Shown piece after piece: positions 5,762 through 54,522 of a DNA stretch of 64,000 nt. The first letter of the stretch is position 1. Each line of letters begins with the position of its first letter. Source of the stretch: Antedon mediterranea. Its lineage: Eukaryota > Echinodermata > Crinoidea > Comatulida > Antedonidae. Made by a program: the position numbers and the translations under genes. The notes under the pieces were generated by a model. The model did not search any database and was not told where the DNA came from. It saw only the letters and a list, made by a program, of their open reading frames with translations. Location of the stretch: the NCBI RefSeq assembly GCF_964355755.1, contig NC_092670.1, positions 3,313,001-3,377,000 of the forward strand, written 5' to 3'.

Positions 5762-6271
5762 CTTGTGTCAGGCATCTTATCGTTGATGCCAGTCCAATTT
5801 TGTTAAGAATGTTAATAAACTCTTCTTGTCTTTCTTCACAAAGTATTTGTCTTTGTTCCAAGTCTATAATCATACTCCAAGAGTCTTCATAATTCTTTAA
5901 AGGATTGTTGTAGAGTGCATCAATTTTCTTAACAGCAGCCTTTCGTAGTTGGTTTCCAAAATCTGCAATCCAGTGTCGATATGGGGTGAAATTTATAATT
6001 TGTATTTCTTGAACTTCAAAGAAAGATTGTTGGAAAACTTTGATAGCTCCAAACGTTTGGGTTAATTTTATCGTTTCATAAAGTAACTCCAGATTGCCTG
6101 GGGATAAACGTCCTGTTTTCCTCAATGCATTCAGTAGATCTATCGTTGTGTTGGCTTTGTCTCTGTCTGCTACTGAAATTAAATCGTGGTATAAAACCTT
6201 CAGCTGTCTGACGAGGTTGTTTTTATCATACCATTTAGAAAAGTTCATCAAGTCCACATTAAAATCTATTT
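5762..6271 (-). CDS. third tandem death-effector-like exon
   Basis: A 510-nt exon, phase 1-1, with acceptor ttatatttttag and donor CACAAG|GTATGT. The first half has NLVRQLKVLYHDLI, TTIDLLNALRKTGRLSPGNL and ELLYETIKLTQTFG. The second has FTPYRHWIADFGNQL, YEDSWSMIIDLEQRQILCEE and a final helix. It is clearly paralogous to the 28877-29401 exon (shared YETIK.T..FG, YED.W..I.DLE....CEE). If not spliced it ends two codons past the donor (GM, then stop), so it could also be a terminal exon. Its membership of the same gene depends on a 22 kb intron that holds the LINE and the minisatellite. Confidence 0.68.
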
Positions 6272-6779
6272 CTAAAAATATAAAAAGTGGGAAAGAGAGA
6301 AGATTTGAGAAAACATTTTAAAAATTGTCAACGATGCAATACGAAAACACCATTTATTGTTTGTTACCTGCCATGATATCAATTCAGTTTTCTATCTTCA
6401 TTTCTTAAAAGCAAAACTGTTGTTTTACAATAAATGCTGTCAAACCATGCCAGTGTGCTTTTCAGACTACCTCTCCTTTTAAGTTACGTATTATGTTCCT
6501 CTACTTCTGCCTTAAAAAGTTCCCTCTGCTAATCAACAGTTAAAATATTCATTTTCTTCTCAATGGTTAGCTGTTAAGGACAAAATAAATAATTAAGTTC
6601 TCAACAACTAAGTGAACAACAAGGTGAATTAAAAGTATATCTGATAACATAGGCGTTTGCGCTGATCAGAGCATGTAACAATGGTATAATGGACAAAGGT
6701 TAAGTTTATGGTGTATGGCATGATGTATAATCACTAGATAAATACACTTTTAACTTGTATGTGTTTACTTCCATGCTAT

Positions 6780-7050
6780 AGTCACATAGTCAGAGCTATG
6801 GAATTCTCTACCAAATAACATAAAATCAGAACTCCATAATATTTCTTTGGCAACTTTTAAATCTTCACTATAGAAAACATATATGTATTAACCTTTTTGC
6901 CTTCACAATTGTAAATAGTTTCTTTTTGTTTTTTTTTAATTTTAATATCTTATTTTTGTTATAAATATGTTTACTGAACCACTTTGGAATTCAGTACAAT
7001 TGTATTGAAAGTGTATTTCAGTTTAAAGAAAGAACAAAAAAATAAATAAA
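6780..7050 (+). mobile_element. LINE 3' end fragment
   Basis: The sequence encodes ELWNSLPNNIKSELHNISLA and then a stop, the W-N-x-LP motif found at the C-terminus of CR1/jockey-type LINE ORF2. The 3' UTR (GAACCACTTTGGAA..CAGTA, TTGTATTGAAAGTGTATTTC) ends in an AATAAATAAATAA tail. The same 3' UTR is present at 54690-55200. Confidence 0.7.
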
Positions 7051-7635
7051 TAATTTAAGAGCAGTTGTCTATAAATATCGACGGTGGCCAAGTAAAAAAA
7101 AATAGATTTTCTTTAAAATTTGCGCAATGAAAGAGGTTTGGTTGAAACATGCACGCACAGATAAAATTATTTTTGATATCTGTATCTTGTTGCCATAGTA
7201 AGGGCCATTTTAAAAATTACAGCATTTTCTTGTAATTTTTCCTATTATTTCACTGTCAAATATGGTAAACGTTGATTTCAATAACTCTTACACGGATTGT
7301 TGAAATTTAATTTAATTTTCAATAAAAGATGATGAAAGGCAAAAATTGTTGGTTGGGCATGGGAATGGACCGTAGCATTTATTTTCAATAGGGGTGTTTT
7401 TACTTGTGGTAAAAAACAACGTCTATGGTCACACTTGAATTGCGTTGTTCTTGATTATATATATTCTATGGACCTTGTGTGAGTGGATAAAAGGCAAACA
7501 AACTTTCGGGAATACATTTTTGTTATACTGATGTTTATAATTGTACTTTTGCTTAATGCTAAAAAATATTGTTGACCCCCGAGGACGATCAAACATTGAT
7601 AGAAACGTCGAACTCAACAGTTCTTTTCAGAATGC
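7051..7635. other. no supported feature
   Basis: A/T-rich DNA without a recognisable gene or repeat. Short ORFs here show no domain. Confidence 0.4.
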
Positions 7636-7899
7636 TAGAAGTTACTTCTACCGTATTTATCCAAATAAACGCACCGGGCATTTATTGTTCAGAGGGTTTT
7701 TAGGTGAAGGGGTGTTTATTCTGTGGAGGTGTTAATTGTTGGTGTGTGTAATATGGTAACATGTATAATCAAATAAATACACTCTAGGTATAAAAAAAAT
7801 ACAACACAATTAATATCATAATGAGAATAACTGGATTAAGCCTCATTCTATCCGGGTGCAAGTACAATCATGATATTGAAAAGGTACAGTATCAGAGAC

Positions 7900-8640
7900 A
7901 ACTACACCAATTCATTGTCATCATTCCGTATGACACTGTTGCATAATATTTTTGAATGTCTGTTCCCAGTGTACATAATAAAACAATATATCGTAACAAA
8001 TTTTTTTTCTACAATATAAAAATTCCCCTGTCCGTGTAGTGCTTGTGGAACATCAGCGTACTGTAGCTGTACCACTTTGTGCAGGATGTCAACAAGTTCG
8101 GGTAGTTTTTTTGGTTGCCAATTAATTGCCAATTTCAATGTGATTAATACTTTCACAATTATTGTTTGTCCATTTTTTTTGGAATTACCGTTTCTTTGCG
8201 GCGGGGAGAGAACACTTTTTCTTTTATAGTGGGTAGAAGTGTATTTCTAAAATGGTTTAAGAAACCAGGTGCTAATTGGTTTAAGTAGATTTCTATATCA
8301 AGGGCTTTCCTCTGTCACTTTCGGTATTGATAATTATCCGCAAATCATATTCACTATCCTGTTTCGTTGTTCTTTGCTAACCCCTTCTTTGTCCCTCAGG
8401 AATTGTATGATGTTTTCTTTTATATGCCGTGTGCATGATACATGATGGGACGAAGGAAAACAAAATTTTATTGCCTTTACCAGTGCTTTCCCTTGGTCAG
8501 AACCAATAATTTGTCATCGGCCAGATGCACTTCAGACTCTAAATCCCTTGCATTTAAATTCCCTTTTAGATGCACAAAGAAATCTAGAAAGGTCTCATAT
8601 AACCCATCCCAGTGCAAGAACATAGGCCCAATAAATATCG
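7900..8640 (-). pseudogene. decayed MULE-type transposase
   Basis: Read on the minus strand, pieces in different frames match the MULE transposase family that is common in marine invertebrates: PIFIGPMFLHWDGLYETFLD, then SHHVSCTRHIKENIIQFL, then NNNCESINH and WQPKKLPELVDILHKVVQLQ followed by a YADV..ALHGQGN segment. Several frameshifts and stops separate them. Family assignment rests on the CTRH.KEN and NN.CES.NH motifs and remains tentative. Confidence 0.6.
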
Positions 8641-8649
8641 GGTGTTGCT

Positions 8650-9190
8650 TTGTATATTATTATTAATAAGGTACTATTATATTATAATAATAAAATAATA
8701 AGAAATAATTTAAGCAACTATGATTTATTTAAAAATAATCCAAACTTAAACTCCATAACTCTATACCTTTACATTTGTTTTGTATTAAATTTTATCACAT
8801 CTATGAATTAAACTCAATCGAGGCAACCTAAATATGTTATCATTTTCATTCGGGAACACATAATAACTTAAAAGATTTGGTTACCCCAATATTATTTTAG
8901 GCAATAAAACTTTTATAAATATCGCTAAATTAATTTTGAAAATGAGAGACGCCCAGTTTCACTCCATTTTGTTTACTGTTAGACTATTAAAAGCGAGGAG
9001 GTGCGTGATTAAATGGGAAATCTCATTAGCCGCCGTAAATGGCAACTTATAGTAGTTACGTATAAAACGAACTGACAAGGGTCTATATAAAGCAGCTTTC
9101 CGCTAACTTCGCAGCCCAAAACTTTTGACTGACCTCTCTTTTCTTTATTCCACCCGTAGTATATATATTATAATTAAGTATCATATTTTG
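8650..9190. other. no gene seen
   Basis: A/T-rich stretch without supported features. Confidence 0.35.
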
Positions 9191-9195
9191 TAATT

Positions 9196-9510
9196 AGATG
9201 TTTTGCCCTACTCTGACGTAATTTGTACTTTATACTAAGTAGATTTAAGAATACTTGCGAAAAAATTTGCAAGTAGTTCTCGGGTGGGACTCAAACCCAC
9301 GACCTCCAGATCACTAGCCTGGCATTCAGACCTCTAGACCACCGAGCTTGCGCTGATGGCTAGTGGTTAGATTTGAGCCCAAGTAAGCAGCGGGTACTGC
9401 ACCAACAGGATTGTAATTGTAGTTTTTGCGTCAGGGAGTTGAGTATTTAGATGTTTTGCCCTACTCTGACGTAAGTGTAGTAAGTAAGTAGTTCTCGGGT
9501 GGGACTCGAA
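9196..9510. repeat. duplicated block containing tRNA-like sequence
   Basis: AGATGTTTTGCCCTACTCTG occurs at 9198 and 9450, and AGTAGTTCTCGGGTGGGACT at 9272 and 9490. A segment of about 250 bp has therefore been duplicated, the second copy being truncated inside the tRNA-like part. Confidence 0.6.
9277..9348 (-). repeat. tRNA-like sequence (Thr-AGT-like), probably a SINE head
   Basis: Minus strand: an A-box-like TGGTCTAGAGG, a 5-bp anticodon stem CCAGG/TCTGG with loop CTAGTGA (anticodon AGT), and a perfect T arm GTGGG-TTTGAGT-CCCAC. The acceptor stem pairs at only five of seven positions and the D arm is poor, so this is probably a tRNA-derived repeat rather than a working gene. Confidence 0.5.
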
Positions 9511-9516
9511 TACCTC

Positions 9517-9848
9517 AAATAGTACAGATCGTATTATCGGCTTCACGTACTAGGCTAGACCTAGCCTAAATCATTTTTTTTCATGGGTGAGAGCCATTCT
9601 GACTAGTGATTCAATGCCACGATGGCTACGTTAAAACAATGGGGCCCATCATGGGCCTAGCTAGCCTACTACTAAACGATTGGCCCATAAATAACAAAGA
9701 TTCCAAACCCATCTTATCAACCAAACTCCTAAACAATCTAAACCTAAAACGTTCTACAAAATCGGCTGTAAGTATTGAGGCAAAACAAGGTCCGATCGCT
9801 GTCCGCACGTATGGTGTCCCGATCGTCTAAGTAGGCCTAAAATAGGGT
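9517..9848. repeat. 330 bp dispersed repeat, copy 1
   Basis: Nearly identical to 58058-58396, including GTACAGATCGTATTAT, CACGATGGCTACGTTAAAAC and AAACAAGGTCCGATCG. A minus-strand ORF (RTAIGPCFASI.TADFVE) is open in both copies, but no domain is recognised. At 58 kb the repeat lies inside a TTAA-flanked element, so it may be part of that family. Confidence 0.75.
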
Positions 9849-9854
9849 TCTAGG

Positions 9855-9992
9855 ACACCTACCCCCTAGACAGTTACCCCCTAGACAGTTATCCCCCGGA
9901 TGTTTACCACCCGGACAACTACCCCCCGGACAACAACTCCCCGGACAACTACCCCCTTAGGACAACTACCCCCTTAGGATAACAACCCCCGG
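9855..9992 (+). repeat. C-rich tandem repeat, about 17-19 bp units
   Basis: Variants of ACAACTACCCCC(CC)GG and ACCCCCTAGACAGTT are repeated about eight times. No other function is visible. Confidence 0.7.
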
Positions 9993-10127
9993 ACGCGATA
10001 TTTCTTTTCGTACATAAGTTGAGGACCCCTCGTGAAACGTCACAAAATAAACATGAATATTCATTAGTTATATCCATAAGGTGTGACGTAAGAATCGAGC
10101 TAACTACAATTCGCTAATGTAAACGAT

Positions 10128-10207
10128 TTCTGTCGAGCCGTCTGTGTAGTCGAGTGAATAACACTATGGACTTTACGTGTCGATGTATGGGGTTCGACTC
10201 CCATGAG
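10128..10207 (+). repeat. tRNA-like SINE head
   Basis: TGTAGTCGAGTGAATAACAC resembles an A box and GGGGTTCGACTCCC is a good B box, spaced as in a tRNA. The anticodon arm is not convincing, so a tRNA-derived SINE fragment is more likely. Confidence 0.4.
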
Positions 10208-12194
10208 AAGTAAAAACCTGACTGTTTAAATTATTTCAACCAATCATTGTCAACATTTTCATAGTTATCACATGTGATTATGATTAAATGCTTTAATTCA
10301 TAGTTGTTAAATATTTGTTTTTGTTTCATTTTCAGAGAGACTAGGGATAACGCGATGCAAATAAAGTAAATAACTATGAAAATGTGACTTTTTAAAAAGG
10401 CTAAACATTGCCGAAAATGATCATTTTTTTGCCAGTGAACAATGTCACCAAAATTACACCCTCTGTTGGTGAATGCATGAATTACGAATATTTTCAAAAT
10501 AATAATTGCATATAATTATGTGTATAATAATAATAATAATCATCATGTATGATTAAAATATAAAACAAACCTGTTGGAATTTACCTACTCCCTCATCATG
10601 GACATCTTTAAACACTGTGTGCCATGGTTTGTAATAACAACCACTAATAGCTCATTTAATTAAGTATTTAAATATACGCCGTGGTTAGGATTCCGGCACC
10701 GGAACCCAACTGCCCAGCGTTAGGGAATCCGACACGCTATTGCGCATGCCCAGAGCGAGGTAATCGGCGACTATATACTATACCAATTCTTTGACTATAC
10801 AGCGATGGATCATTTCATAGCTGCGCCACACGGCGAACTAGCCTAGATGCCTACTAATGCGGGATCCACTAATCTAGGCTAGGGCTACCAGTTAGACGTG
10901 ACCAGTGGGCCTATTTATTTTGTAATTAAAAAGTGGTTGCTTCATTCATATATAAACTTCATATCATTATGAATTATATAATTACATGACTAGTTTTATG
11001 ATTTTTCATAACGCATTTAATATACTGTACATAACATGCAATCACAAGTTGATTTGTTGACGGCAGCCACCGCGTGGATGTGAAAAAACTGTTCGGGAAT
11101 TCGGGGTCGCAACGTTAAAAACAGCATTACGATTCTTAAGCCCCTTTCTCACAGAGTTGTGTGCCAGGAATATTGCGGGAATATACCATTACCATGCCGG
11201 TATGGTTTTCTGTGAGAACGGGTCGTCTTGGCATCATGCCGGCACCATGCCGGCATCGACATGACCTGCTTTAGACCTAGTAATATTCTAGGGATATTCC
11301 CCGCAATGCCAGACGGGCATTCTGTGAGAACGTATCGCCGTTATATTCCGGGGTTCCCCGTCGAGGCTTTGACACATTGCGCGGTCAAGGGTATCACTTT
11401 GGCGCCTATTCAATTCAATTAACAATAATAATGTCGAACTGGAGGGATAATGAGATAAGAGAGCTGCTTAAAATAAGGGGACAAGAAGAAATTTGTAGCA
11501 TAATCTATAGGCCGCTAGGCTATGATTTAGCTCTTTGTTTGTTGGTGCCTGACCTTTCGTCGCCTTGTAAATTGTAGGCCTACAGCCTTCTAAGGTGTTT
11601 TACAGATTGCCGATGACGACAAATTAATTGCTATACCTGTATAATATATGCACAATATACTGTACATAGCATGTATTGCATAAATATGCTATAAAGGAAG
11701 ATAATAATCTGTAACTTGACACATTCGCCGCCATATCATCGCAAAAATAATAACATTAACATTAAAGGACGCCCTCAATAATTATTTTGTCAGAGACTTT
11801 TTATTGGCCGAATATGCCCGACTCCTTTCTCACAGAAAGCCGGTATATACCGTTGGGAAGTTGGGAAATCAACGTTGCATGTGTCCTCTATAATGTCTAC
11901 TAAGAAACTCAACTATTTTATGTTATTAACTACATTAAAATGATCTGAATGTTGGATGTATCAAAAACTGCAAGTGCAAGTGTTAATATAAGGTACTTTT
12001 GTAATTTTTTCAAGTAAATTTAAATCGATTTTTGTAGCCTCAAAGGCTAGGCCAGTGGTTAAAATAGAAGCCAACTTGGAAGGAGAGTACTGAGGTTAAA
12101 AGCCAAGCCAAACAACCCTATTGTCCTTACCAGCGTCAAGCTACAATTGATTACATAATACTTCCTGTACTGAAGCCAAGCTTGACAATATACT

Positions 12195-13394
12195 ATGGCG
12201 AGTTCACCAACTCGATCCCCAGCTTCACAGAACACAACAATCACAAATAAACCTGTAACCTGTACCAAAAATTGTACTATAAAAACTTACAAAGGAAAAC
12301 CAATTGAGTGCTCGTTATGCCAGGGTGCTTATCATCCACAATGTGTTGGATTAACTGGAGCTGGCAAGCGAACTTGGTTCTGCAATGACTGTAAATGTAT
12401 GGCAATAGACTATAGTTCGATAAAACAAACAGTTCAAGCCTTAAGAACTGATATTGACAACTTTAATCTAGTAAAAGAAGAAGTAGTTTCTTTAAAGTCA
12501 ACAATGAACGAAATGTCTGATACAATTAGTGATATGCGAAATCAACTTTCATCAATGAATGAGGAAAACAAACATCTGAAAAACGAACTTTCAATGCTTC
12601 GCAAATCAGATCTAAACAAACGAGAGAAACCAACAGGTACTTCAAATATTAGTGACCATGGCGCAAACGAAAGCCAAGACACAAAACGCACACTTCTCAT
12701 AGGAGACTCGATCATCAAACATATAAATGAACGTGGACTTGCTAATACGACAGTTAAATGTATGCCAGGCGCAAAAATAAAAGATATTAATACATCGATA
12801 ATGGAAGCCGGCCCTGAACATTTTGAGGCAATCATTGTACATGGCGGAACTAATGATTGTTCATCTGATGATGCTCATCTACTACAGGCTATAGACGAGT
12901 TCCATAAGTTAATAGAAGACGTCAAAGTAAAGGCTCCTGAAACAAAGCTAATACTATCTACTGTATGCCCACGTGCTGATGAAGAAATATTCCAGCAGAG
13001 AGTTGATCGATTGAATGTTAACATAAAAGAAATGGCAAAGGAAATGGATTGTGTGGTGTCTGACAATGACTTATCTTTTAAACTGTCAAATAATAAATGC
13101 GAAACATCTACTTTAAACAGAAGTAAACTACATCTAAGTACTCAGGGAACCAAGCGTCTTATCAATAACATCAATGACGTTCACCAAATAATTAAAATCA
13201 GGAAAACTCATCAAAGTAAGAAGGAATTTCATCCCCGTTTACACCAATCACAAACAAAGAAAACAACAAGATGTTACTATTGCGGAGAAACGAATCACGT
13301 AATGAAGGACTGTAAGCATGGACAGCCAATCAGATGCAGATGCTGCAAGCAACAAGGCCACAAGGAGAATCATAACGTATGTAGACAATATTAG
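12195..13394 (+). CDS. LINE ORF1: PHD-like finger, coiled coil, SGNH esterase, CCHC zinc knuckles
   Basis: A 399-codon ORF. Residues about 23-70 hold a Cys/His-rich finger (CTKNCTIKTYKGKPIECSLC, then YHPQCVGL and WFCNDC), like the PHD finger of CR1-type ORF1. About 80-140 is a heptad-rich coiled coil. From about 165 comes an SGNH hydrolase/esterase: TLLIGDSIIKHI (GDS nucleophile block) and IIVHGGTNDC (GxND block). The C-terminus has two zinc knuckles, CYYCGETNHVMKDC and CRCCKQQGHKENHNVC. ORF1 proteins bind element RNA and form particles; the esterase role is unresolved. ORF2 follows after 33 nt. No internal stop is seen. Confidence 0.88.
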   Translation: MASSPTRSPASQNTTITNKPVTCTKNCTIKTYKGKPIECSLCQGAYHPQCVGLTGAGKRTWFCNDCKCMAIDYSSIKQTVQALRTDIDNFNLVKEEVVSLKSTMNEMSDTISDMRNQLSSMNEENKHLKNELSMLRKSDLNKREKPTGTSNISDHGANESQDTKRTLLIGDSIIKHINERGLANTTVKCMPGAKIKDINTSIMEAGPEHFEAIIVHGGTNDCSSDDAHLLQAIDEFHKLIEDVKVKAPETKLILSTVCPRADEEIFQQRVDRLNVNIKEMAKEMDCVVSDNDLSFKLSNNKCETSTLNRSKLHLSTQGTKRLINNINDVHQIIKIRKTHQSKKEFHPRLHQSQTKKTTRCYYCGETNHVMKDCKHGQPIRCRCCKQQGHKENHNVCRQY

Positions 13395-13427
13395 GAATTT
13401 GGCAAAGAAGATGATGCCGTACCCACC

Positions 13428-17158: not shown

Positions 17159-17234
17159 AATATATAAATATTTACCGCCCACCATATTATCTACCATTTA
17201 TCTAATTCAATAATATATTATATTTTTATATATA

Positions 17235-17275
<41 letters not shown>

Positions 17276-28171: not shown

Positions 28172-28216
28172 TTTCTGCATTGCTTGATGGTCCAGCTTTA
28201 CTTCTTGATCGTTTAC
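28172..28216 (-). CDS. 45-nt linker exon copy 5
   Basis: A 45-nt phase 1-1 exon encoding KRSRSKAGPSSNAE, with acceptor tttttag and donor GTATGT. It lies downstream of the second tandem-DED exon and accepts its phase-1 donor (G|GT gives Gly). It supports transcription continuing past 28.8 kb toward another module. Confidence 0.62.
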
Positions 28217-32342: not shown

Positions 32343-32387
32343 TTTCTGCATTGCTTGATGGTCCGGCTTCACTTCTTGATCGTTTAC
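32343..32387 (-). CDS. 45-nt linker exon copy 1 (KRSRSEAGPSSNAE)
   Basis: A 45-nt phase 1-1 exon with acceptor ttaaaag, body encoding KRSRSEAGPSSNAE, and donor A|GTATGT. After the Cys-rich exon (ends in G) it reads G-KRSRS. The basic KRSRS start may be a nuclear-localisation-like or phosphorylatable linker. The left-flanking intron is nearly identical to that of the copy at 28172. Confidence 0.65.
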
Positions 32388-34465: not shown

Positions 34466-34682
34466 CTTCAAATAGCCGCTTGTAACGTGTAACATCCATA
34501 CTCATATACGTGCCAGTTTTGGAGCATGTCAACTTCTCGGCGTGGAAATCACCAAGATTTTGAATGTGCTTCTGTTCTGATGTATCACTACATACATCAC
34601 AAAGTATGCATCTCTCATATTGAATCCCTCTTCTACCACCATCTTTAGAAGGTTCAAATGACTTCTGGATCGTTAACAAAAC
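34466..34682 (-). CDS. post-COR Cys-rich exon
   Basis: A 217-nt exon, phase 0 to 1. It starts VLLTIQKSFEP and holds CILCDVCSDTSEQKHIQNLG, then a single C in KLTCSKTG, and ends DVTRYKRLFEG. CxxCxxC plus a further Cys/His suggests a small metal-binding fold after COR. I know of similar C-terminal Cys-rich segments in invertebrate ROCO predictions but cannot name the domain. The phase 1 donor (G|GTAAGAG) lets it splice in frame to any of the downstream phase-1 linker or DED exons. Confidence 0.75.
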
Positions 34683-34739: not shown

Positions 34740-35100
34740 CAGGCCCGTAGCCAGAATGCATCAGAGGGGGGTTTTCTTGACACCAATTATTTTGCGAGCG
34801 CAGTGAGGGCCCCCGGTCGGGGTTCAGGGGCTGAAGGCCCCTGCTGGAAGCTTTGGCTCTCTCTCAAGCAATTTCGGTTGTTTTAATCAGCTTACAGACA
34901 TTTTTTTACCAACTAAAATCTGAGTTATGCAAATAAATTATATAGGCCTAGTACACTACAGCATTCTATAATTGATAATTAATTGCACGATTTTGGAAGT
35001 GGAGCCTTTGTTTTTCAGGGGGAGGGGGGGTGTGTTCGCTGGTATAAGGGGTTTCGTGCAAAAGGGGGACTCCCAAAAAACCTCCCTGGCTACGGGCCTG
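34740..35100. mobile_element. 361 bp MITE, TIR CAGGCCCGTAGCCAG, 5-bp TSD
   Basis: Perfect ends CAGGCCCGTAGCCAG / CTGGCTACGGGCCTG with ACAAT duplicated at 34735-34739 and 35101-35105. The interior is GC-richer than its surroundings (GGGCCCCCGGTCGGGGTTCA). No ORF is supported. It lies in the intron between the ROCO exons at 35707 and 34682. Confidence 0.88.
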
Positions 35101-35706: not shown

Positions 35707-35778
35707 TTCTTTACATGCTTCAGAAGAGGGTTCCTCATTACTTGTTTCATTAGGAGCATTTGTTCTTTTAACAGTCAC
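35707..35778 (-). CDS. post-COR acidic linker exon
   Basis: A 72-nt exon in phase 0-0 encodes VTVKRTNAPNETSNEEPSSE plus a short tail. The VTVKR strand completes COR-B and the rest is an acidic Ser/Glu linker. The acceptor is ttttttag and the donor GTATGT. Confidence 0.75.
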
Positions 35779-35872: not shown

Positions 35873-36175
35873 CTTTAACAAGAACTTTCTTTCATCGTCC
35901 GTGGTCACAAATTTGACAAGCGATAAGGTCACATGATGATCTTGGTCGAAGTAAAGTGCAGCATGATTATACATGAGTATTGGGTCAACTCCTTTCTTTT
36001 GAAACTTGTTGAGGAAATCAATAATCATGTATGGAAACAATACATCTGGCAGATATCCCTTAAAGTCGTAATAGATACTGATTGATTGTGAATCATCAGG
36101 CACTGGTTTCACTTCACTTGATGTCTTAAAAGCAAGGCGTAATGGCACAAAGAATGATCGCTTTCCAACAGATTC
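35873..36175 (-). CDS. COR-B exon
   Basis: A 303-nt exon (101 codons, phase 0-0) begins ESVGKRSFFVPLRLAFK, then SISIYYDFKGYLPDVLFPYM, the COR-B beta sheet (FVP..L, L...L.PR-like region, P..LF). It continues with NHAALYFDQDHHVTLSLVKF. The exon ends LLKV at a G|GTACTG donor. It is the best-conserved looking part of the COR region. Confidence 0.87.
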
Positions 36176-36396: not shown

Positions 36397-36591
36397 CTTA
36401 GATTTACTCTTCATGTCTTGGCTGCTGGTTGTCTTCCTTTTACAAATGAAACTTAATTGAATCATCAGTGCTACAAGGAACTCAAAATTCTTTCCTTTGT
36501 CAACTTCACGTTCTTTCCATAATTTTCGCAACAACTTTTCTATCAGTATGCCCTTGTCAAGTTTATCAAAAGCCTTCCTAAATGCAGGCTT
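36397..36591 (-). CDS. COR domain exon B
   Basis: A 195-nt exon in phase 0-0 with the motif DKLDKGILIEKLLRKLWKER, matching the winged-helix-like COR-A helices (GIL...LL..LW), and FLVALMIQLSFICKR. The acceptor is ggtttag and the donor AAG|GTAGGT. Confidence 0.85.
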
Positions 36592-36730: not shown

Positions 36731-36919
36731 TGGAAATTTTGGTGGAATAACTGTTACAAATGCAGTAACAATTTCAACCAGCTGCATCGGATCTAACACT
36801 GCTTTATCTCTTAATAATTTGTTGTCAGGCATGTAAACAATTTCACCAAGATCATACAGGAAGTTAAGCAATACCATTTGTTCTCTTTCAATACCATTCT
36901 TAGTTGCCAGCATTTTGAG
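36731..36919 (-). CDS. COR domain exon A
   Basis: A 189-nt exon in phase 0-0. VLLNFLYDLGEIVYMPDNKL is the hallmark COR motif (L.FL..LG.I.YF), followed by a VLDPMQLVEIVTAFVTVIPP strand-helix segment. The COR domain mediates dimerisation and couples to GTP hydrolysis in ROCO proteins. The intron after exon 38878 is about 2 kb long and holds a 691 bp inverted-repeat element. Confidence 0.88.
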
Positions 36920-38877: not shown

Positions 38878-39126
38878 CTCTTGTAAAGGACACAAAGAAA
38901 AATGTTTTTTCCTCCTGAGGTCATGAAGGTCACATCGAAAACGCATCCACTTTAAAGGTTTATCTTTTTCTAAAGCTTTCATAAGCTTCTCAATAACATC
39001 TTTGAGATCACTAAAGCTTTTATCTGTTGTTTCTCGGCTGTTTTCAATGGCAAAATATTGATATATATGTTCTTCATACAGTTTCCCTCTAAGCGCATTT
39101 TTAACCTTCTCTAAAATGATATTTGC
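38878..39126 (-). CDS. end of Roc / start of COR domain exon
   Basis: A 249-nt exon (83 codons, phase 0-0). It contains FAIENSRETTDKSFSDLKD, which fits the end of Roc (serine/glycine-rich G5 strand and last helix). This is followed by PLKWMRFRCDLHDLRRKKHF, the first COR helices, whose W and [FL]R...L pattern is typical. The acceptor is acaaacag and the donor GAG|GTAAAC. Confidence 0.84.
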
Positions 39127-39335: not shown

Positions 39336-39515
39336 CTCATCATCTTGTTGTTTTTCAGTCTTACCAAGCTTACCCTTATGTGTACCCACAATTAGGATAG
39401 TTGGTTTTTGAACTTCATTTTTTTCATCTTCTTTCACCTCACGGCTATGAGAATAAACTGACAGGATGTAAGATAATATGAACTGGAGATTTGACCAATG
39501 ATGTTGATGCTTTTT
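39336..39515 (-). CDS. Roc GTPase exon 6 (G4 region, THKG)
   Basis: A 180-nt exon in phase 0-0. It encodes an amphipathic helix (HHWSNLQFILSYILSVYSHS), a charged loop and PTILIVGTHKGKLGK. IVGTH is the base-recognition strand and G4 motif of Roc domains, where THxD is normal. Here the aspartate position is glycine, which may change guanine specificity. The polypyrimidine acceptor and the GTAATA donor are visible. Confidence 0.82.
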
Positions 39516-39621: not shown

Positions 39622-39711
39622 GCCATTAGAATCAATGACGATAGCACGATCTTCGAGGTTCACACTGAGATCAAACACTACGATGTAAAGTGCTTCTGAT
39701 GTTACGAAGAT
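39622..39711 (-). CDS. Roc GTPase exon 5
   Basis: A 90-nt exon in phase 0-0 encodes IFVTSEALYIVVFDLSVNLE. The ALYIVVFDLS strand is the usual Roc beta-4, following directly on the HGIHR end of exon 4. The acceptor is tttttccag and the donor GTAAGT. Confidence 0.85.
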
Positions 39712-40226: not shown

Positions 40227-40384
40227 CCGATGTATACCATGGTATATCATTTGTCCCCCATGATCCCAGATGTTGAATGTTTCTTCCAAAGTCTCCTCCT
40301 TATTTTCCTCAACTTTCTTGATTACATCTTTATCTAACTGCTGTTCTGTATCAATTTGAATAGCTTGAGTAGCTGTATCTGTAC
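40227..40384 (-). CDS. Roc GTPase exon 4 (Walker B / G3)
   Basis: A 158-nt exon, phase 1 to 0. An acidic, Glu/Lys-rich linker (DKDVIKKVEENKEETLEE) leads into FNIWDHGGQMIYHGIHR. WDHGGQ is the Roc G3 motif (DxxG followed by Q), the position that contacts gamma-phosphate in related GTPases. The acceptor is ttttcactacag and the donor GTAAGT. Confidence 0.85.
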
Positions 40385-41439: not shown

Positions 41440-41504
41440 GTTTACAGTTTTCTTTTTTCTCAATTTGTCAGTGACCATTTTTGTATACTGTTTTGAAGGA
41501 TTTC
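41440..41504 (-). CDS. Roc region exon 3 (basic, Lys-rich insert)
   Basis: A 65-nt exon, phase 1 to 0, encodes NPSKQYTKMVTDKLRKKKTV, a basic stretch inserted between the switch I strand and Walker B. The acceptor ttctacag and donor GTAAGT are strong. The next recognised exon (40384) needs phase 1, so either a small exon with length 3n+1 is missing between them or this exon is alternatively used. Confidence 0.65.
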
Positions 41505-41819: not shown

Positions 41820-41905
41820 CACTATCAGCTTTAGCCTCTTTCCATGTTGTGCTTGCTGTTCTTATCACTGCTATGCCATCTGTAACTATATGGTCTTTCT
41901 CAAAT
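41820..41905 (-). CDS. Roc GTPase exon 2
   Basis: An 86-nt exon, phase 2 to 1, joins in frame to the P-loop exon. It encodes FEKDHIVTDGIAVIRTASTT, matching the switch I / beta-2 region of Roc domains, where T-D-G-I precedes a strand. The acceptor ttttgtcag and donor G|GTAAAC are visible. Confidence 0.78.
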
Positions 41906-43105: not shown

Positions 43106-43109
43106 AGTA

Positions 43110-43614: not shown

Positions 43615-43639
43615 TAATAGCTTCCAGAAAACGTTTTAA

Positions 43640-45117: not shown

Positions 45118-45230
45118 TCATTTTGGTAAAGATCTTGTAATTACTTTTTGAGTAATCCTGCTAACAAACAAACAAACAGACAAACAAATAAACACACGCG
45201 ATCGATTACATCCTTGACGGAGGTAAAATA
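45118..45230 (+). repeat. dispersed repeat, copy 2 (see 37880-38002)
   Basis: Same block TTTTGGTAAAGATCTTGTAA to GCGATCGATTACAT..GGCGGAGGTAA (here GACGGAGGTAA). Confidence 0.75.
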
Positions 45231-45869: not shown

Positions 45870-48800
45870 CTAGCAAAAAAAACAGCCCAAAGTGAAACAA
45901 ATTGCAAACAGAGATTTTTCTTTTTTAAATGGTCATAGATCAAAATTTGAGCATCACACCTCTGTCACTCATCCCGATGATATGCAAATTAGCTTAAATA
46001 TGCAAATTAGGGTGAAATTACAGGGAATTACCATATCTCAAAAACTATTAGTCCGAGAGAGTTGATTTTTTCACTGATCTATTCAAAATGTATATATTTA
46101 TATTTACTCTAATGAAACATTTTACGAAAAAATGACCGGAAGTACAACATTTGACCTTCGACCCCATTTCTCAATGTTTGCATATACAATGTGACTAAAA
46201 TGTCTGTAGAGACTTTATTTTGCCCTCAAATGACCCAGACATAGGTTCCTAATAGCCAGCATAGGATCACTTTGTAATTCCCAAAATCACACCTTTGTCA
46301 CACACCTCAAAAGTATGCAAATTAGTAGTACAATTTAAATAAAATATGCAAATAAGGGGAAAAAATTACAGTTGTTCTATATCTCGAAAACCACTAATGC
46401 TAGAGAGCTGATTTTTTTTCACAGCCGTATTCAAAATGTACATATTTCTATTTGCTCCAATGAAACATTTTACAAAAAATTGACCGGAAGTATGACATTT
46501 GACCCTCGACCCCATTTCTCAATATTGCATATATAAATGAAACTAAAATGTCTGTAGAGACTTTGTTTTGCCCTCAAATGACTCCGATACAGGTTTCTAA
46601 TAGCCAACATAGGACTGTTTAGTAGATCTCAAAATCACACCTGTATCACTCACCTCCAAAGTATGCAAATTATTAGTACAAGTTACATGAAATATGCAAA
46701 TTAGAGGGTGAAATTAAAGGTTCCTATATATCGAAAACCACTAAGGCTAGAGAGTTTATTTTTTCAATAACGTGTTCAGAATGTACATATTTATATTTAC
46801 TCTAATGAAACATTTTACGAAAAAATGACCGGAAATACAACAATTGACCCTCGACCCCATTTATCAATGTTTGCATACATAATGCGACTAAAATGTCTGT
46901 AGAGACTTTGTTTTGGACTCAAATAACTCGGATACATGTTTCCTATAGTCAGCATAGGACCGCTTTGTAATTCCCAAAATCACGCCTTCGTTTTGGCATG
47001 GTTGGAATTCCCTTTTTTCGTATTAGTTTATGTACAGCGCTTAGAGGTTTCACAACATTAGGCGCTATATAAATCCAGGATATTATTATTATTTCTCAAT
47101 ATTTGCATATAATGCAACTAAAATGTATGTACAGACTTTGTTTTGGCCTCAAATGACTCGGATACAGGTTTTATATAGCCAGTATAAGTCAAGCACCTCG
47201 AAAGTATGCAAATTAGTAGTACAAGCTATATGAAATATGCAAATTACAGTGAATTGCCTTATGTATCTCGAAAACGCTAATGACCGAGAGAGAGATATGG
47301 CAACTTTCTTGTACTACTGATTTGCATACTTTCAAGCGAAGTAACAGAGTTGTGATTTTGAGAATTACTAAACAGTTCTATGCTGGCTATAGAAAACCTC
47401 TATCTGGCTCATTATTGAAAAAAAAAATTATCGAAAGTATGACATTTGACCCTCGGATACAGGTTTTATATAGCCAGTATAGGATCATTTAGTAATTCCA
47501 AAAGTCAAGCAACTCGAAAGTATGCAAATTATTAGTACAAGTTATATAAAATATACAAATTAAAGCCTTATGTATCTCGAAAAACGCTAATGACTGATAG
47601 AGATATGGCAACTTTCACCTCTTGTACTACTAATTTGCATATTTTCTAGGGAAGTAACAAAGGTGTGATTTTGAGAATTACTAACAGTTCTATGCTGGCT
47701 ATAGAAAACCTGTATCTGAGTCATTTGAGGCCAAAACAGTCTGTACAGATATTTTAGTTGAATTATATGAAAATATTGAGAAATAGGGTCAAGGGTCAAA
47801 TGTCATAATTCAATCAAGACAATTTTTGCGTAAAATGTTTCATTACAGCGAATATAAATATGTACATTCTGAATCAACTCTGAATTCAAATCAACTCTCT
47901 AGCATTAATGGTTTTCGAGATATGGGAAGACTGTAATTTCACCCATAATTTGCATATTTCATGTAACTTGTACTAATAATTTGCATACTTTGAAGGTGAG
48001 TATACAGGTGTGATTTTGAGATTTACTAAACATTCCTATGTTGGCTATCAGAAACCTGTATCCGAGTCATTTGAGGGCAAAACAAAGTCTCTACAGACAT
48101 TTTAGTTTCATTATATATGCAATATTGAGAAATAGGGTCGAGGGTCAAATGTCATAGTTCCGGGCATTTTTTTGTAAAATGTCTCATTACAGCAAATATA
48201 AATATATATATTTTAAATATTTTAGTGAAAAAATCAACACTCTAGCATTAGCGGTTTTCGAGATATGGCAACGCTGTAATTTCACTCCCTAATTTGCATA
48301 TTTAATATTACTTGTAGTTGTACTACTAATTTGCATACTTTCGAGGTGCATGACGAAGTTGTGATTTTAGGAATTATAATACAGTTCTATGGTGGGTATT
48401 GAAAAACAATATCCATGTCATTGAGTCCAAAATAAAGTCTCTACAGACATTTTAATCACATATTTATGTAAATATTGAGAAATGGGGTCAAGGGTCAAAA
48501 TTTGGTACTTCTGGACATTTTTATGTAAAATGTCTCATTAGAGCAAATATAAATATATATATTCTGAACCAGACTGTGCAAAAATGAACTCTCTAGGATT
48601 AGTAGTTTTTAAGATTTGGTAACCCTGTAATTTCACCCTAATTTGCATATTTAAGCTAATTTGCATACCTTCGGGATGAGTGTCAGAGGTGTGATGCTCA
48701 AAAAATAATCACCTTTATCATATGTAACCATTTAAAAAAAAGAATCTCTGTTTGCAATTTGTTTCACTCAAAATGCTAGATTGACTAGCCTAGAAGGACT
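45870..48800. repeat. palindromic array of about 330 bp units with ATTTGCAT octamers
   Basis: Forward units from 45900 to about 47560 each contain TATGCAAATTAGTAGTACAA, TCTCGAAAACCACTAATG, ATGAAACATTTTAC and AAAATGTCTGTAGAGACTTT. From about 47590 to 48800 the same units occur inverted. The extreme ends (TAGTCAATCTAGCA at 45863, TGCTAGATTGACTAGCC at 48773) pair. A retroposon tail is inserted at 46990-47095. Confidence 0.85.
46990..47097 (+). repeat. retroposon 3' tail GCGCTATATAAAT...(ATT)n
   Basis: TACAGCGCTTAGAGGTTTCA, GGCGCTATATAAATCCAG and (ATT)n interrupt one 330 bp unit, which resumes at ATTTCTCAATATTTGCATAT. Confidence 0.6.
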
Positions 48801-48835
48801 GTGTCTTTTCAAAATGGCCATTACTAAACACGTTT

Positions 48836-51800
48836 AAGAGCCATTGTCTGTAAGAATCAAAGAAATATCAAAAAGAGTTGCAGACTCAAAAAAATGGATT
48901 TCTTTCAAATTTTGCACATGGCTATAATGTGTTGAGAGAAATCAAATATGAAGTATTTTTTATTTCACACGTATATTTCCATGGCAACGGCCAAATTTGT
49001 GTTTTTGACAAATTTTGTCCTTTTTTAAGGTTTTTAAAAATGGATATTGGTACTACTTTGATGATCAATATTTTTGTTTTGTTCATTTAATTATAAAAAA
49101 TAATTAGTGTATGCATAATAACAATGCATTGTGTACCTGTTTCAAATTTTTTTATTATTTTTTATTTCATACTTTGGGAGATACCATTTATTTAAAAAGG
49201 GGTGTTTTTCACTTTTTTAAAACTGTTCAATGCAACTAAACTTTACTTCACCATAACGCCCAAAGTGGTGTATTTTTTTAGCTGATTTATTACAAATAGG
49301 TAGTTCTAATGTTTAATAATTGATTTCTAAAATAAAATACTGGGGTAAATTTAAAATCTACAAGCAGTGTTGCGAGAAACATAGGCATTTTTATAAAAAA
49401 AAAAAACATGGTATATTAGTAAAAACATTTTATTTTCTTTGATTATTTGATTTGAAACTCATTGGTCAGAAAAATTCTTAATGTTTTATATAGTTCTAGT
49501 TGTGTTTTTTAATTATAGATTCTGTAATTCCCAGTTTTAATGTCATTTTATAGGTTATATCCTCTGGAAATTTGAATAAATTATCAGATCATAAATCGTC
49601 AGATTACTCCTCTCTTATTTTGAAGCTCCTCTTTCATTTGTTTACTTCTTTTATTTGCTAACCTAAGCAGATCCCACATGCCCATCCACCACCACTTTCG
49701 ACTACCACCCCTCCCCCCCCCCACCCCGACTATAACCACAAAAAGATAAACTGCAACACTTTGGTCGATCATCCACTATAGAGTGTCAAATGCATGCATT
49801 CAAGCACCACCCACACTGCCGCTACTATCGCCCCAATGAATAGACCCTCGCCTTCAACCCCCTAACTATTTAAAAGTCCTGGATCCACCACTTTTCCCTC
49901 CCCAAAATAGAACCAATCAAAAGTCAATGATATACTCAGGTATGTTAATGCTACATAACAAATATTGAAGCCCTGATTTGAAATTTCATTTCATTTAAGG
50001 TCAGCATGTAAAATATCACACTTTATTATTAAATATTAGTTTTAAATTCTATATTTTTTTTACTGTGATGGTTGGATTCAGTATTAATTATTAATTAATA
50101 ATTATCTGATAATTATTTAATTTCCCTTAGTTATGCATAGCAACAGTTACTATGGTAACTAAAATTGAGATATTCTTTAGATTTTGCATATTTATCTTAT
50201 ACAAATTTAAATTTGTAGATTATTAGCAGGCATGCCTTATTTGCATTTTCAAATTACCGTTTCACAAGGTCATATTCGTAAGCACTTTCTTCTGTGATTA
50301 TTTTTATTCATGAAAACCCCATATTTTATTTACAGCGGCCACCTCCCTTAACGGACGCACTTTGAAAAGTCTGTTTGTTCTTCCTATCTAATTAGTGCAT
50401 TTGGTGCTTACCGTAAGCAGCTGCGGGCACCTTTTTATACAAAAAATGAGATTTTTTGTAAGCGGCCAATCGAAAAATGTGATACTTATTGCATGGACCT
50501 ATGAATTAGAGGTGCATGTTTATTGTATTTCTTTATATATTAGCTATAATAATAATAATAATAACAACTTTATTTAAAAACGGATGCAACTTTATTAGCT
50601 TTATTTTGAAGAGGTTTTAAAAACATTACTGTGAAGAGATGAGAAAACTACAAAGATTTTGACCGACCATTTTTCATATTATAAAAGTTTTTAAAATTTG
50701 TATGAAAATGCTAAAAAATACTAAACCACCTGATTATAAATAATAATAGGCCTACAATTATAAGCGGCCACTTTTCCAGGTCCCGAGGGTGGCCACTTAC
50801 GGGAGGTTCAACTGTATTTAAAAAGACAATTATCCTTAGTTATGCATAGAAACAGGTTCTAAAATAACATAAATAATACATTTTGACATAACTGACCCAA
50901 CAAATGACCCTTTCACAAGGTCAGACATTTTCTGGGATTCAGTAGATAAGTAAATTTGGGAAAAAGTAGTAAAGCTATGTAATCAATTGTTTGTAGTCAT
51001 GAAACCCCATATTAAAAATATTGTATTTAGTTACGTATAGAAACAGTTGCTACAATACACTATAGGTAAAATGTTGATGTCATTTGACCTCAATATGTAA
51101 AAAAAATCATTAGTTACGTAAACAAATTTAAGATAACACTAAAGGTAATTTTTTTAACCTTTATTCAGATTCGTCAAGACTTTCTTTCTGAGATTATTAG
51201 GCTTCAGTATTTAAAGTAAATTTGGCAAAAAGTAGAAATGTAAAACTATGTAGAAAAAATGTTTTGTATTTATGAAAAACCCCTTATTTTTTTGGAAATT
51301 TTCGCATAGAAACAGTTACTATGGTAAAATGTTGACCTCAAAATGAATGAATTTACAAGGTCAAGTTTCATTAATGGAATGCAGTAGAAGTAAAATTGAG
51401 AAAATTACAAATGCAATCAATTCTTTGTATTTATAAAAACGCAATTTCTTACGGGTTTTTTTAAATTACTTTCCTTAGTTACACATAGAAATGGTTGCTA
51501 AGGTAACACTATAGGTAAAATATGAAAATTGTTGAGAATTGTTACAAACTATCTTGTAAATTTTGATCAAACATTAATAGTTGTAGTAAAGTGGGGACCT
51601 GTCCTGTTTTGCATTCTGACCCCTTTTGACCTCAAATGACCTATTTACAAGGTCAGATTTTTTGGGAGGTCTTTCTGTATCTCTTTACACAAAATAGATT
51701 TAAAAATTTATAAAAACCATTGACGCAATTATTTCCAAGTTTAACATTATTTTCCATCAACTAAATATTTCAATGCAAAATACTGTTTTTCTGGCAATTA

Positions 51801-52437
51801 ATTGAAATAAACCTGGCAACACATTTTTAAATTGTGTTTCATGTGTTTTGTTTGTTGATATTTTGTTATATTTTTGTATTTTTCGTATTTTCCTGGCAAC
51901 ACAAAACCTATTTACGAAATTTACCCCAGTGTTTTTTTCGTGATTATTGTTGACAAACCTATTGACTATCAAATTAAAAAACCTCATTGATTTAAAAACA
52001 CCACTTTGGAAGTTATAGGTACGTTTATGAGGTATACTTTTATAAAAAAAATATTTTTTAAAAACACCCCTTTTTAAAATAATGGTATCAACCAAACTCC
52101 ATTTTGTAATTTATTTTTTTTCTACATTAAATGGAACTCAATACATGTTGATTACACTGCTATAAACTAAAACTGTATACTGTAAGTATTTTTGGTTAAA
52201 ATAAGTATACAAGTTTGTACTTTTTCACTATAGAAAATCTGTGAAAAATGGCAAAAACATCAAAATTTGGATAATTGACCGTTGTCATGGCAACGGAGGC
52301 TAAAAATAAAAATGAATGTTGTAGATATGCTTTTTATTGAAATGTCTATTCATGGTAAAAATTTGAGAGAAATCCATTTTTTTACATCTGCCACCAAATC
52401 TTTGATTTTTACAGACAATGGCTCTTAAATATTATAT
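48836..52437. repeat. second large inverted repeat (3.6 kb) next to the octamer array
   Basis: AGAGCCATTGTCTGTAAGAA at 48838 is mirrored at 52409-52432; CATGGCAACGG at 48980 by 52284; ACCATTTATTTAAAAAGGGG at 49187 by 52066. The inner part (50000-51700) has repeats of CATAGAAACAGTTACTATGG and GACCTCAAATGAC..ACAAGGTCA. It is probably an expanded foldback element without coding capacity. Confidence 0.75.
50337..50813. mobile_element. mariner-like MITE with TA target site
   Basis: Left end TA|CAGCGGCCACCTCCC and right end GGGAGGTTCAACTG|TA. The right terminus read inward (CAGTTGAACCTCCCGTAAGT) is a common mariner-type end; the left terminus is altered. Contains AAGCGGCCA motifs and an (ATA)n tract. 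Confidence 0.55.
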
Positions 52438-52569
52438 TAGGCATATAAAAATTTACCTCTATATAATATGTACTGTAATTAATATATTATATAGAGAATA
52501 CGACTGTGTCTTTTATTATTCAAACAATTATGTAAAATTTATTTAAAAACAATAGGCCTAATTATTACA

Positions 52570-53222
52570 ATGTATAGCCCGTAAAGCCAGAGTATCACTC
52601 ACTTCTCCCTTGCCATCTTAACGACCTTTTCGCTCCTAATAATACCGTTCATAAATATTATACTAGAACAAGAAATAACATATATATCCCTAACCATAAC
52701 ACCAATTATTTTCAACATAGCATTAGATATTCTGGACCTCTATTGTTTAACAATTTACCCCCCTCAATTTCCTGTGCTGCTAACCGCTATTCATTCAATA
52801 ATAACATAAAAAATTACCTCTTGTCTCATTACTGATCGATCTGTTTGATATGGTCGTTGTTTCCATGTTCCGTGACTTGCTATCTTTATTATTCAATTGT
52901 CATCATATTCGCTTTATGCCATGCAGCTGTACTTTTTTCTGTTCTTTTTTTATTTTTTATTCCAACTTTTATCTACTGGTTTTATATATATTTTGTATTT
53001 CTTTATTGTTTAATTAATTTATTTTCTTTATTTATATTTTTTTTTTTTCTTCTCTTAATTTAAATATTTTGTAAAGGCAATCCCGTCACAAGATTGTAAT
53101 CTTTTTGGGATTTGCCTTCGTCCATTTTCTTGTTTTATCACTTGCCATTTTGTTTTTGTTACTTTTGTCTTTTGGACGTGAATAAATGTTCCTTGAATTG
53201 AATTGAATTGAATTGAATTGAA
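52570..53222 (+). mobile_element. LINE 3' end with (TTGAA)n tail
   Basis: The first about 270 bp encode HKYYTRTRNNIYIPNHNTNY and IRYSGPLLFNNLPPSISC, the ORF2 C-terminus (H.Y.TR.., YSGP..WN.LP). The 3' UTR ends GACGTGAATAAATGTTCC(TTGAA)n. 5'-truncated insertion in the composite block. Confidence 0.82.
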
Positions 53223-53229
53223 TCCATTT

Positions 53230-53640
53230 TTATACTATGCATACCAGGGAGGTCACCTCCCTGATGCATACTGTGACAGATATATCATATCCATTCGATC
53301 ACCTTATTTTTATTTTTATTTCTATTTTATTTATGTCCGTACATTATGTAGGATAATATCAAGTATATAATGATTATTGTTATTAGGCAAATCACGTATA
53401 TTTTTATTTCTAATGTTTAAAATAGTTTTTAGTAAAAATAATCATTATATGCGGATGGTTAAAAGGCAAGTTACTGAAATAAACCCCCAAATAAGCCATA
53501 TCGGAGATGCGCCTTCTACGATCGTGCAGCTGTTTCCTCTAACAGTACGTTATTTTGCTGCCGTATTATTATTAGAAATTCTATATTCAAAATTAACTAA
53601 AAACATAATGAGCGTTTTTATTAAAAATGATTCTAGTGCG
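53230..53640. other. no gene; hairpin at the start
   Basis: TATGCATACCAGGGAGGT / ACCTCCCTGATGCATA forms a hairpin at 53237-53270. The remainder is A/T-rich. Confidence 0.4.
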
Positions 53641-53986
53641 TCCCATACAAATTAGCGCGACTAAAATAAAACGTAACCGATATCAAACGTAACTAATATG
53701 ATAAAAAGCGTATCTAGAGGCGCTCCATACAAAGTACCGGATGTTCATTTTATCGCGACCGATTTCAAGCGCGACTGATTTCAAGCGCGACCAATTTCAT
53801 CTGACACCTTAGGTCTTGTGATCTTAGGTCTTAGGAGGTCTTAGCTTTTGTGATTTTAGGTTTGTGACACCCGGCTTATGGGGCTAGTTTCTTTAATTGC
53901 AAAAATAATGATAATTTTGGTGCATTAAAAAAAATAAAATTATATATATTAAAATATTTCCACAAAAAAAAAAAAAAAAAAATTAC

Positions 53987-54522
53987 ATTTTGTTAATTTT
54001 TGCGCAGCTGTCTGGTTGAGTAATTTAGCAAATCTGTTAGTTTTCTCTGGTGTACTATCCAATCGTTTCTCTACCTCCAAAAAGAACACAAAATCCCATT
54101 TATCTTTATAATCACTCGAATCTTCACCATAAAATGCAGCAATTCCAGGTAACTCGGATCCTCCAACAGCTCTAAGACACTCATACAGTTTTCTACGATA
54201 CAGTGTTAATCTTTCACCTCTGGTGGCGTTATATCCAGCAGTATTTTGCTTATATTTTTCAACCAGCTTTATGGCAGCATCCAGCCCTGTCAAGTTAGCT
54301 ATCTCTAACAAAATCTCCACATTATTACATGAGATATCACTACCTAATTCTCTCAGATTTTGCAACAATTCCAATGCTGATGTGCTATCTGTCAACGTGG
54401 AAACTGATAGTGCATTGAATAAAAGACATCTTAACCATTTGTATTGACCACCTCCAGAAAAATGTTTAGAAAAGTCAAGTAGTAAATCACTGAGTTTTTC
54501 TTCTGGAGTTGGCATTTCGAGG
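53987..54522 (-). CDS. first coding exon: N-terminal tandem death-effector-like domain
   Basis: The acceptor (tttttcag) at 54523 is followed by CCTCGAA and an ATG at 54515, so the start codon lies 7 nt into the exon and a 5' UTR intron is implied. About 176 codons encode two helical halves. The first (residues about 5-85) has the DED-like pattern SALELLQNLRELG followed by NVEILLEIANLTG. The second (about 95-170) has YRRKLYECLRAVGG, then DKWDFVFFLEVEKRL, resembling the second DED of tandem-DED proteins. The donor T|GTAATT at 53986 leaves phase 1, which joins in frame to the Roc exon at 42488. Without splicing the frame runs into a poly-Phe tract from the A/T-rich intron, so readthrough is unlikely to be the true end. 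The classical RxDL motif is not obvious, so DED-like is safer than DED. Confidence 0.7.

What the first reader, a model, noticed from the sequence alone, without database searches (positions are those of the whole stretch)
5762..54522. A ROCO GTPase with death-effector-like modules at both ends
Reading the minus strand exon by exon gives tandem-DED, Roc, COR, Cys-rich segment, basic linker repeats, tandem-DED and possibly a third tandem-DED. Known ROCO proteins with death-fold domains (for example DAPK1) carry one C-terminal death domain. Tandem DED units at the N-terminus and again at the C-terminus would combine a caspase-8/FLIP-like scaffold with a GTPase switch in one chain. Exon phases support the joins. 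That all pieces lie in one transcript is inference.
Basis: partly seen in the sequence, partly recalled or inferred. Interest (0 to 1): 0.88.

Follow-up and report, generated by a model that had tools for sequence, protein, structure and literature searches.

The report
Crinoid GTPase flanked by death-effector modules
A feather-star gene most likely encodes one protein with a LRRK2-like GTPase core and caspase-8-like tandem death-effector modules at both ends; it belongs to a large crinoid gene family that seems to have swapped such modules as whole exons.

Summary
The pieces are real. The window is from the crinoid Antedon mediterranea or very near kin: public protein P0001, but for its first two residues, is identical to the end of my gene model. 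On the minus strand, 20 exons (54515-27491) join with GT-AG sites and fitting phases into a 1,098-aa chain: tandem DED, Roc, COR, basic linker micro-exons, tandem DED, stop. Profiles of both DED exon types hit the caspase-8 tandem DED; Roc-COR hits Roco and LRRK proteins. An independent public Antedon model, P0007, has DEDs on both sides of Roc-COR.

Corrections: the 'Cys-rich segment' most likely ends the COR fold; the third tandem DED (6271-5762) probably starts the next gene. ROCO proteins with death-fold domains are known beyond DAPK1.

Unproven: one transcript. P0001 starts at 34.9 kb, I found no public protein for this gene's Roc-COR, and the first donor is weak.

I found 40 Antedon and 6 Anneissia proteins of this kin; unlike DED cassettes sit at either end, on phase-1 introns here. 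Best reading: an exon-shuffled GTPase scaffold for DED assembly. All 25 Antedon public models showing the G4 motif, and this gene, lack its aspartate. New variant of a known kind.

The parts
53987..54515 (-). Exon DEDn: ATG plus N-terminal tandem DED (subfamily b), phase-1 donor; a good splice acceptor just upstream (about 54522) suggests at least one more upstream exon
   Evidence: 84-86% identical to the first DED cassette of P0023
42329..42488 (-). Roc exon 1 with P-loop GQEGVGKT; phase-1 acceptor; N-terminal modules join just before this stretch in the paralogs
41820..41905 (-). Roc exon 2 (switch I region)
41440..41504 (-). Roc exon 2b, missed by my first model, found by tblastn with paralog P0003
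40916..40988 (-). Roc exon 2c, acidic insert, recognised from paralog protein sequence
40227..40384 (-). Roc exon 3 with G3 motif WDHGGQ
39622..39711 (-). Roc exon 4
39336..39515 (-). Roc exon 5 with G4 position THKG (Asp absent)
38878..39126 (-). End of Roc and start of COR
36731..36919 (-). COR exon 1 (COR-A)
36397..36591 (-). COR exon 2
35873..36175 (-). COR exon 3 (COR-B region, by fold of paralog P0007)
35707..35778 (-). Short exon continuing COR-B region
34466..34682 (-). Cys-rich exon CxxCxxC...H...C, most likely the end of the COR fold; phase-1 donor
32343..32387 (-). 45-nt linker micro-exon L1 (KRSRSEAGPSSNAE type), phase 1-1
   Evidence: used in P0001
32203..32247 (-). 45-nt linker micro-exon L2, phase 1-1
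   Evidence: used in P0001
30508..30545 (-). L3, a 38-nt broken copy of the linker exon (not a multiple of 3), skipped in P0001
29856..29900 (-). 45-nt linker micro-exon L4, phase 1-1
   Evidence: used in P0001
28877..29401 (-). Exon DED2: C-terminal tandem DED (subfamily a), phase 1-1 symmetric
28172..28216 (-). 45-nt linker micro-exon L5, phase 1-1
   Evidence: used in P0001
27491..27516 (-). Terminal exon, LSAPGLQ and stop
34896..34901 (-). ATGTCT followed by gtaagc: the likely start (MS) of public model P0001, inside the intron before the Cys exon
5762..6271 (-). Exon DED3: tandem DED, phase 1-1; nearest relative is the N-terminal cassette of P0007, so probably the start of the next gene rather than part of this one

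Best explanation
The locus is one ROCO gene of a crinoid gene family, of about 1,100 residues: tandem DED - Roc - COR - basic linker - tandem DED. Shown: the domains, the in-phase canonical exon chain, a public paralog with DEDs on both sides of Roc-COR, and DED cassettes of different subfamilies at either end of family members. Inferred: the N-terminal cassette is spliced to Roc; Roc-COR is a nucleotide-controlled dimerisation device, as proposed for other ROCO proteins; dimerisation or release of the chain brings tandem DEDs together and nucleates or caps DED filaments with caspase-8/FLIP/FADD-like partners; because the N cassette (subfamily b) and C cassette (subfamily a) differ, one molecule could link two DED assemblies; and the family serves cell-death or immune signalling, its outputs varied by exon shuffling.
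Against: No RNA evidence. Public model P0001 starts at 34.9 kb and covers only the Cys exon to the stop, and neither search (lengths about 574-1827 and 303-964, only about 8,000 candidates scored in each) found a public protein for this gene's Roc-COR. The DEDn donor AAT|GTAATT is the fourth weakest of 20 scored, with 11.5 kb of intron behind it. P0045's DED-Roc join could be a merge of neighbouring genes. In the DED profile alignment the caspase-8 'RINRLDLL' stretch, which carries the motif I recall as RxDL, is not kept, so filament formation of the known type is not assured. The G4 aspartate is missing, so GTP specificity is doubtful. Both structure models are of middling confidence (mean pLDDT 64.3 and 62.5); Foldseek gave the DEDn model no hit at E 0.001 or less; the N-terminal DED of P0007 came out poorly and is not among the rows listed.
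Confidence: 0.6

Rival explanations
1. Separate genes. The 54-kb DED exon belongs to another gene (an upstream P0023-like gene, or a short DED-only protein), and the Cys-linker-DED2 part is its own gene starting at 34.9 kb, so no chain has DEDs at both ends here.
For: P0001 begins with MS, best placed at 34.9 kb. DEDn is 84-86% identical to an internal cassette of P0023, an NB-ARC/TPR protein, and has a good acceptor before its ATG. Its donor is weak. Read through, the exon ends in a stop at 53949.
Against: None of P0023's first 935 residues was found in 54.6-64 kb at E up to 1. The nearest downstream same-strand exon of this family is Roc1, with matching phase 1. The Cys exon most likely lies in the COR fold, and in the 6 crinoid sequences aligned it runs on from COR, so P0001 looks like a fragment or a short isoform.
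Confidence: 0.25
2. One still longer gene: the 6-kb tandem DED is a third module, used as an alternative 3' exon.
For: DED3 is phase 1-1 and would splice in frame to any intact linker exon.
Against: P0001 stops at 27.49 kb; DED3 groups with the N-terminal cassette of P0007 (97/88 support, 57% identity) and its phase-1 donor would fit a Roc1-type acceptor; 21.2 kb separate it from the stop, with an oppositely oriented LINE between.
Confidence: 0.07
3. An unexpressed or decaying copy: the only family member found on its contig, its Roc-COR part without a public protein.
For: No public protein found for its Roc-COR; one of five linker copies is broken (L3); P0001's contig (41.38 Mb) differs from that of the other models found.
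Against: No frameshift or stop in any of the 20 exons over 3,297 nt; four of five linker copies keep frame; the joined model scores 959 bits against the family Roc-COR profile, though that profile includes part of the window gene.
Confidence: 0.1

Closest known systems
ROCO proteins with death-fold domains (Trichoplax ROCO genes, PMC4104024; DAPK1)
   Same: Roc-COR core joined to death-fold modules; lineage-specific expansion
   Different: Trichoplax cases are described with CARD and death domains; DAPK1 (recalled) has kinase, ankyrins and one C-terminal death domain. Here tandem DEDs at both ends, no kinase or ankyrins
Caspase-8 / cFLIP / viral FLIP tandem DED (4zbw, 8ym5, 2f1s)
   Same: Two DEDs in tandem over about 170 residues, matched by profile and by fold
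   Different: No caspase or pseudo-caspase domain listed; Roc-COR instead; the caspase-8 RINRLDLL stretch is not kept
Antedon P0007 (public, uncharacterized)
   Same: DED - Roc - COR - tandem DED; 58% identity over 97% of the query region
   Different: Both cassettes are subfamily a; a C-terminal anchor by hydropathy, not seen in the window model
Brown algal LRR-ROCO genes with exon shuffling (PMC11378527)
   Same: Expanded ROCO family whose modules are phase-symmetric shuffled exons; proposed immune receptors
   Different: There LRR exons (72 bp, phase 2) vary the sensor part; here phase-1 exons carry death-fold modules
LRRK2-FADD-caspase-8 axis (PMC5823876)
   Same: A ROCO protein acting on the FADD/caspase-8 pathway
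   Different: LRRK2 recruits FADD through an armadillo motif; here DEDs are built into the chain

Membership tests
ROCO family | Roc GTPase domain followed directly by COR | tested here: met
   Pfam Roc E 1.5e-14 and COR-A E 1e-11 in the joined model; profile hits Roco and LRRK2; fold of paralog P0007
ROCO family | P-loop G1 and G3 motifs | tested here: met
   GQEGVGKT and WDHGGQ
ROCO family / guanine-specific GTPases | Asp of the G4 motif ([NT]xxD; label recalled) | tested here: not met
   THKG in the window; G or A at this place in 25 of 25 Antedon public models that show the motif, Asp in 6 of 6 Anneissia models, three of them isoforms of one gene
ROCO family | Nucleotide-controlled dimerisation | not testable with these tools
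   Needs purified protein
Tandem DED (caspase-8/FLIP type) | Two DEDs in tandem matching solved tandem DEDs | tested here: met
Tandem DED (caspase-8/FLIP type) | RxDL motif at the end of DED1 (label recalled) | tested here: not met
   Caspase-8 RINRLDLL aligns with VTEQFGLA-type sequence in the C-terminal cassette profile
Caspase-8 / FLIP proteins | Caspase or pseudo-caspase domain after the tandem DED | tested here: not met
   Pfam scan of the 1,098-aa model lists only Roc, COR-A, Ras and DED at E up to 0.01
DAPK family | N-terminal kinase, ankyrin repeats and C-terminal death domain (recalled) | tested here: not met
   None listed in the model at E up to 0.01
NLR-type receptors | NACHT or NB-ARC ATPase with a ligand-binding repeat region | tested here: not met
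   Not listed in the model at E up to 0.01; an NB-ARC/TPR protein, P0023, carries a close copy of the N-terminal cassette
Crinoid ROCO clade | High similarity over Roc3 to Cys exon, with Cys-rich end | tested here: met
   51-73% identity to five crinoid relatives; 42 of 45 hits named as crinoid, the other 3 weak and without organism name

The most novel reading that the evidence does not exclude
Crinoids run a family of intracellular signalling GTPases built like a socket board: a fixed Roc-COR core with a phase-1 socket at each end into which whole-exon modules (tandem DEDs of two or three subfamilies, death domains, ankyrins, kinase, membrane anchors) are plugged. In Antedon the core has lost the guanine-reading aspartate and may respond to another nucleotide. 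Members carrying unlike tandem DEDs at the two ends would cross-link two separate DED polymer systems under nucleotide control, a wiring not found in the literature searches named under Tried and rejected.
Probability: 0.3. Interest if true: 0.78.

Novelty: new variant of a known kind. Interest (0 to 1): 0.6.

Why it matters
Tandem DEDs are best known as caspase-8/FLIP prodomains. A chain with one at each end of a LRRK2-like GTPase core would put DED assembly under a nucleotide switch, and gives a natural construct to ask whether ROCO dimerisation can seed DED filaments. The crinoid family, with interchangeable cassettes, also looks like an animal case of exon shuffling in a death-fold signalling family, parallel to brown-algal ROCO receptors.

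Tried and rejected

Papers: PMC2575513, PMC8195603, PMC11378527, PMC9334734, PMC5823876: passages only. PMC4104024: passages and the first of two parts of section 5. All others: search listings only. That no paper describes a ROCO-DED fusion rests on searches in the held open-access library; I did not read the other papers they list.
Full report
What the window is. A search with the 29-kb DED exon returned one protein, P0001, a 317-aa uncharacterized protein of Antedon mediterranea, 99% identical over 93% of the exon. It maps to the window as Cys exon, linker exons L1, L2 and L4, DED2, L5 and a terminal exon at 27.5 kb; from its third residue on it is identical to model residues 784-1098. Antedon is a comatulid crinoid. 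The window is therefore Antedon mediterranea or something very close.

The gene model. Reading splice sites by eye and then with paralogs gives 20 exons from 54515 to 27491 on the minus strand, 3,297 nt, 1,098 residues and a stop. All 19 joins are GT-AG and in phase. Order: tandem DED (aa 1-176), Roc, COR (to about 855), basic linkers, tandem DED (901-1075), a last linker, stop. The chain was partly guided by paralog proteins, so phase fit alone is not independent proof for Roc-COR; the DEDn-Roc1 join has no paralog with the very same cassette to guide it.

Two corrections. The Cys-rich segment most likely belongs to COR: aligned ranges reach model residue 862-863 (ranges give end points only, and several rows stop near 813-815), and Pfam COR-B hits the matching place of P0002 (E 0.0014, under its cut-off). 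The 6-kb tandem DED is phase-compatible but sits 21.2 kb beyond the stop and groups with P0007's N-terminal cassette, so it probably opens a next gene outside the window.

One transcript? For: matching phase; a good acceptor before DEDn and a fair one before Roc1; P0007 with DEDs on both sides; P0045 and P0046 with DEDs before Roc (P0045 by my profile only); the variety of N-terminal modules at the same Roc start. Against: P0001 starts at 34.9 kb; two searches covering lengths of about 303-1827 found no public protein for this gene's Roc-COR; the DEDn donor scores 4.19, fourth lowest of 20, though above 90.5% of the 3,418 GT sites on the strand; P0045 could be a gene merge. I put about 0.7 on the N-terminal join and higher on the C-terminal one.

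The family. Three searches gave 51 protein ids, 46 of them crinoid by name: 40 Antedon and 6 Anneissia; the other five are weak hits without an organism name. Several are isoforms or fragments, so these are models, not genes. Thirty of the 40 Antedon models are listed with the 36.19-Mb contig; P0001 is the only one with the 41.38-Mb contig. 45 of 46 match the Roc-COR profile; 21 of 45 carry a tandem DED after it (P0001 included; three are isoforms of one Anneissia gene). Only P0007 shows DEDs at both ends, but only 18 of 45 reach the P-loop at all, so absence of an N-terminal DED mostly says little. Other members have ankyrins (P0002, P0030, P0047), a kinase plus two death domains (P0016), an N-terminal (P0022) or C-terminal (P0018) death domain, or hydropathy-predicted C-terminal anchors (P0004, P0007, P0009, P0012 and others). 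No named non-crinoid animal appeared, but only about 8,000 candidates sharing most words were scored in each large search, so 'crinoid only' is not shown.

Exon shuffling. In the window, DED2, DED3 and the intact linkers are phase 1-1, the Cys exon leaves in phase 1 and Roc1 enters in phase 1. The window's N cassette groups with an internal cassette of P0023, an NB-ARC/TPR protein (95/98), while many paralogs carry b-type cassettes at the C end; P0007 carries a-type at both ends. Linker exon regions include pairs at 95% over 110 nt and 100% over 81 nt (other copies 61-66%). So the same kinds of cassette occur at either end and in an otherwise unrelated protein, on introns of one phase here: the mark of exon shuffling. 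Intron phases of the paralogs were not seen.

The G-domain. G1 and G3 are intact, but the G4 aspartate is G or A in the window and in 25 of 25 Antedon public models with the motif; it is Asp in 6 of 6 Anneissia models. By established knowledge of Ras-like GTPases this residue reads guanine, so specificity may have changed or binding weakened in Antedon.

How it probably works. PMC4104024 discusses the ROC-COR unit as a nucleotide-dependent dimerisation device. LRRK2 is reported to act through FADD and caspase-8 (PMC5823876, passages). A chain with tandem DEDs at both ends would, on dimerisation, present four cassettes and could seed, cap or cross-link DED assemblies. This is inference. The caspase-8 RINRLDLL stretch is not conserved, so the binding faces may differ.

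Compared with what is known. ROCO with death-fold domains is a known kind: Trichoplax (PMC4104024), DAPK1 (recalled); ROCO domains also occur in Aplysia Toll-like and MyD88-like proteins (PMC9334734, passages). Shuffled ROCO exons are known in brown algae (PMC11378527, passages). DED-NACHT hybrids are reported in amphioxus, sea urchin and Nematostella (PMC2575513, passages). Tandem DEDs at both ends of Roc-COR were not found in the searches named under Tried and rejected. I rate it a new variant of a known kind, interest 0.6.

Noticed in passing
window:39336-39515 and Antedon models: The G4 aspartate of the Roc domain is replaced by Gly or Ala in the window and in 25 of 25 Antedon public models that show the motif, while 6 of 6 Anneissia models keep THRD.
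   Followed up: partly
P0016 (public Antedon protein, other contig): Kinase - Roc - COR - two death domains in one chain, a DAPK1-like plan in the crinoid ROCO clade.
   Followed up: partly
P0023 (public Antedon protein): NB-ARC/TPR protein ending in two different tandem-DED cassettes, the first 84-86% identical to the window's N-terminal DED exon.
   Followed up: partly
window:30508-30545: A broken 38-nt copy of the 45-nt linker micro-exon among four intact copies; some copies with flanks are 95-100% identical, so exon duplication looks recent.
   Followed up: partly
window:12186-16988, + strand: LINE with ORF1 (PHD, GDSL/SGNH-type lipase, CCHC knuckle) and ORF2 (endonuclease plus reverse transcriptase), both long and open.
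   Followed up: no
window:56812-62005, - strand: Broken retrotransposon-like reading frames by eye only; the four frames I scanned gave no Pfam hit at E 0.001.
   Followed up: no
window:20197-21513: 49-bp tandem repeat, 26.9 copies, 98% matches.
   Followed up: no
window:45946-48702: A 348-351-bp tandem repeat on both sides, arranged as large inverted repeats up to 96% complementary, inside the proposed DEDn-Roc1 intron.
   Followed up: no
window:9276-9348, - strand: A lone tRNA-Thr(agt) prediction.
   Followed up: no
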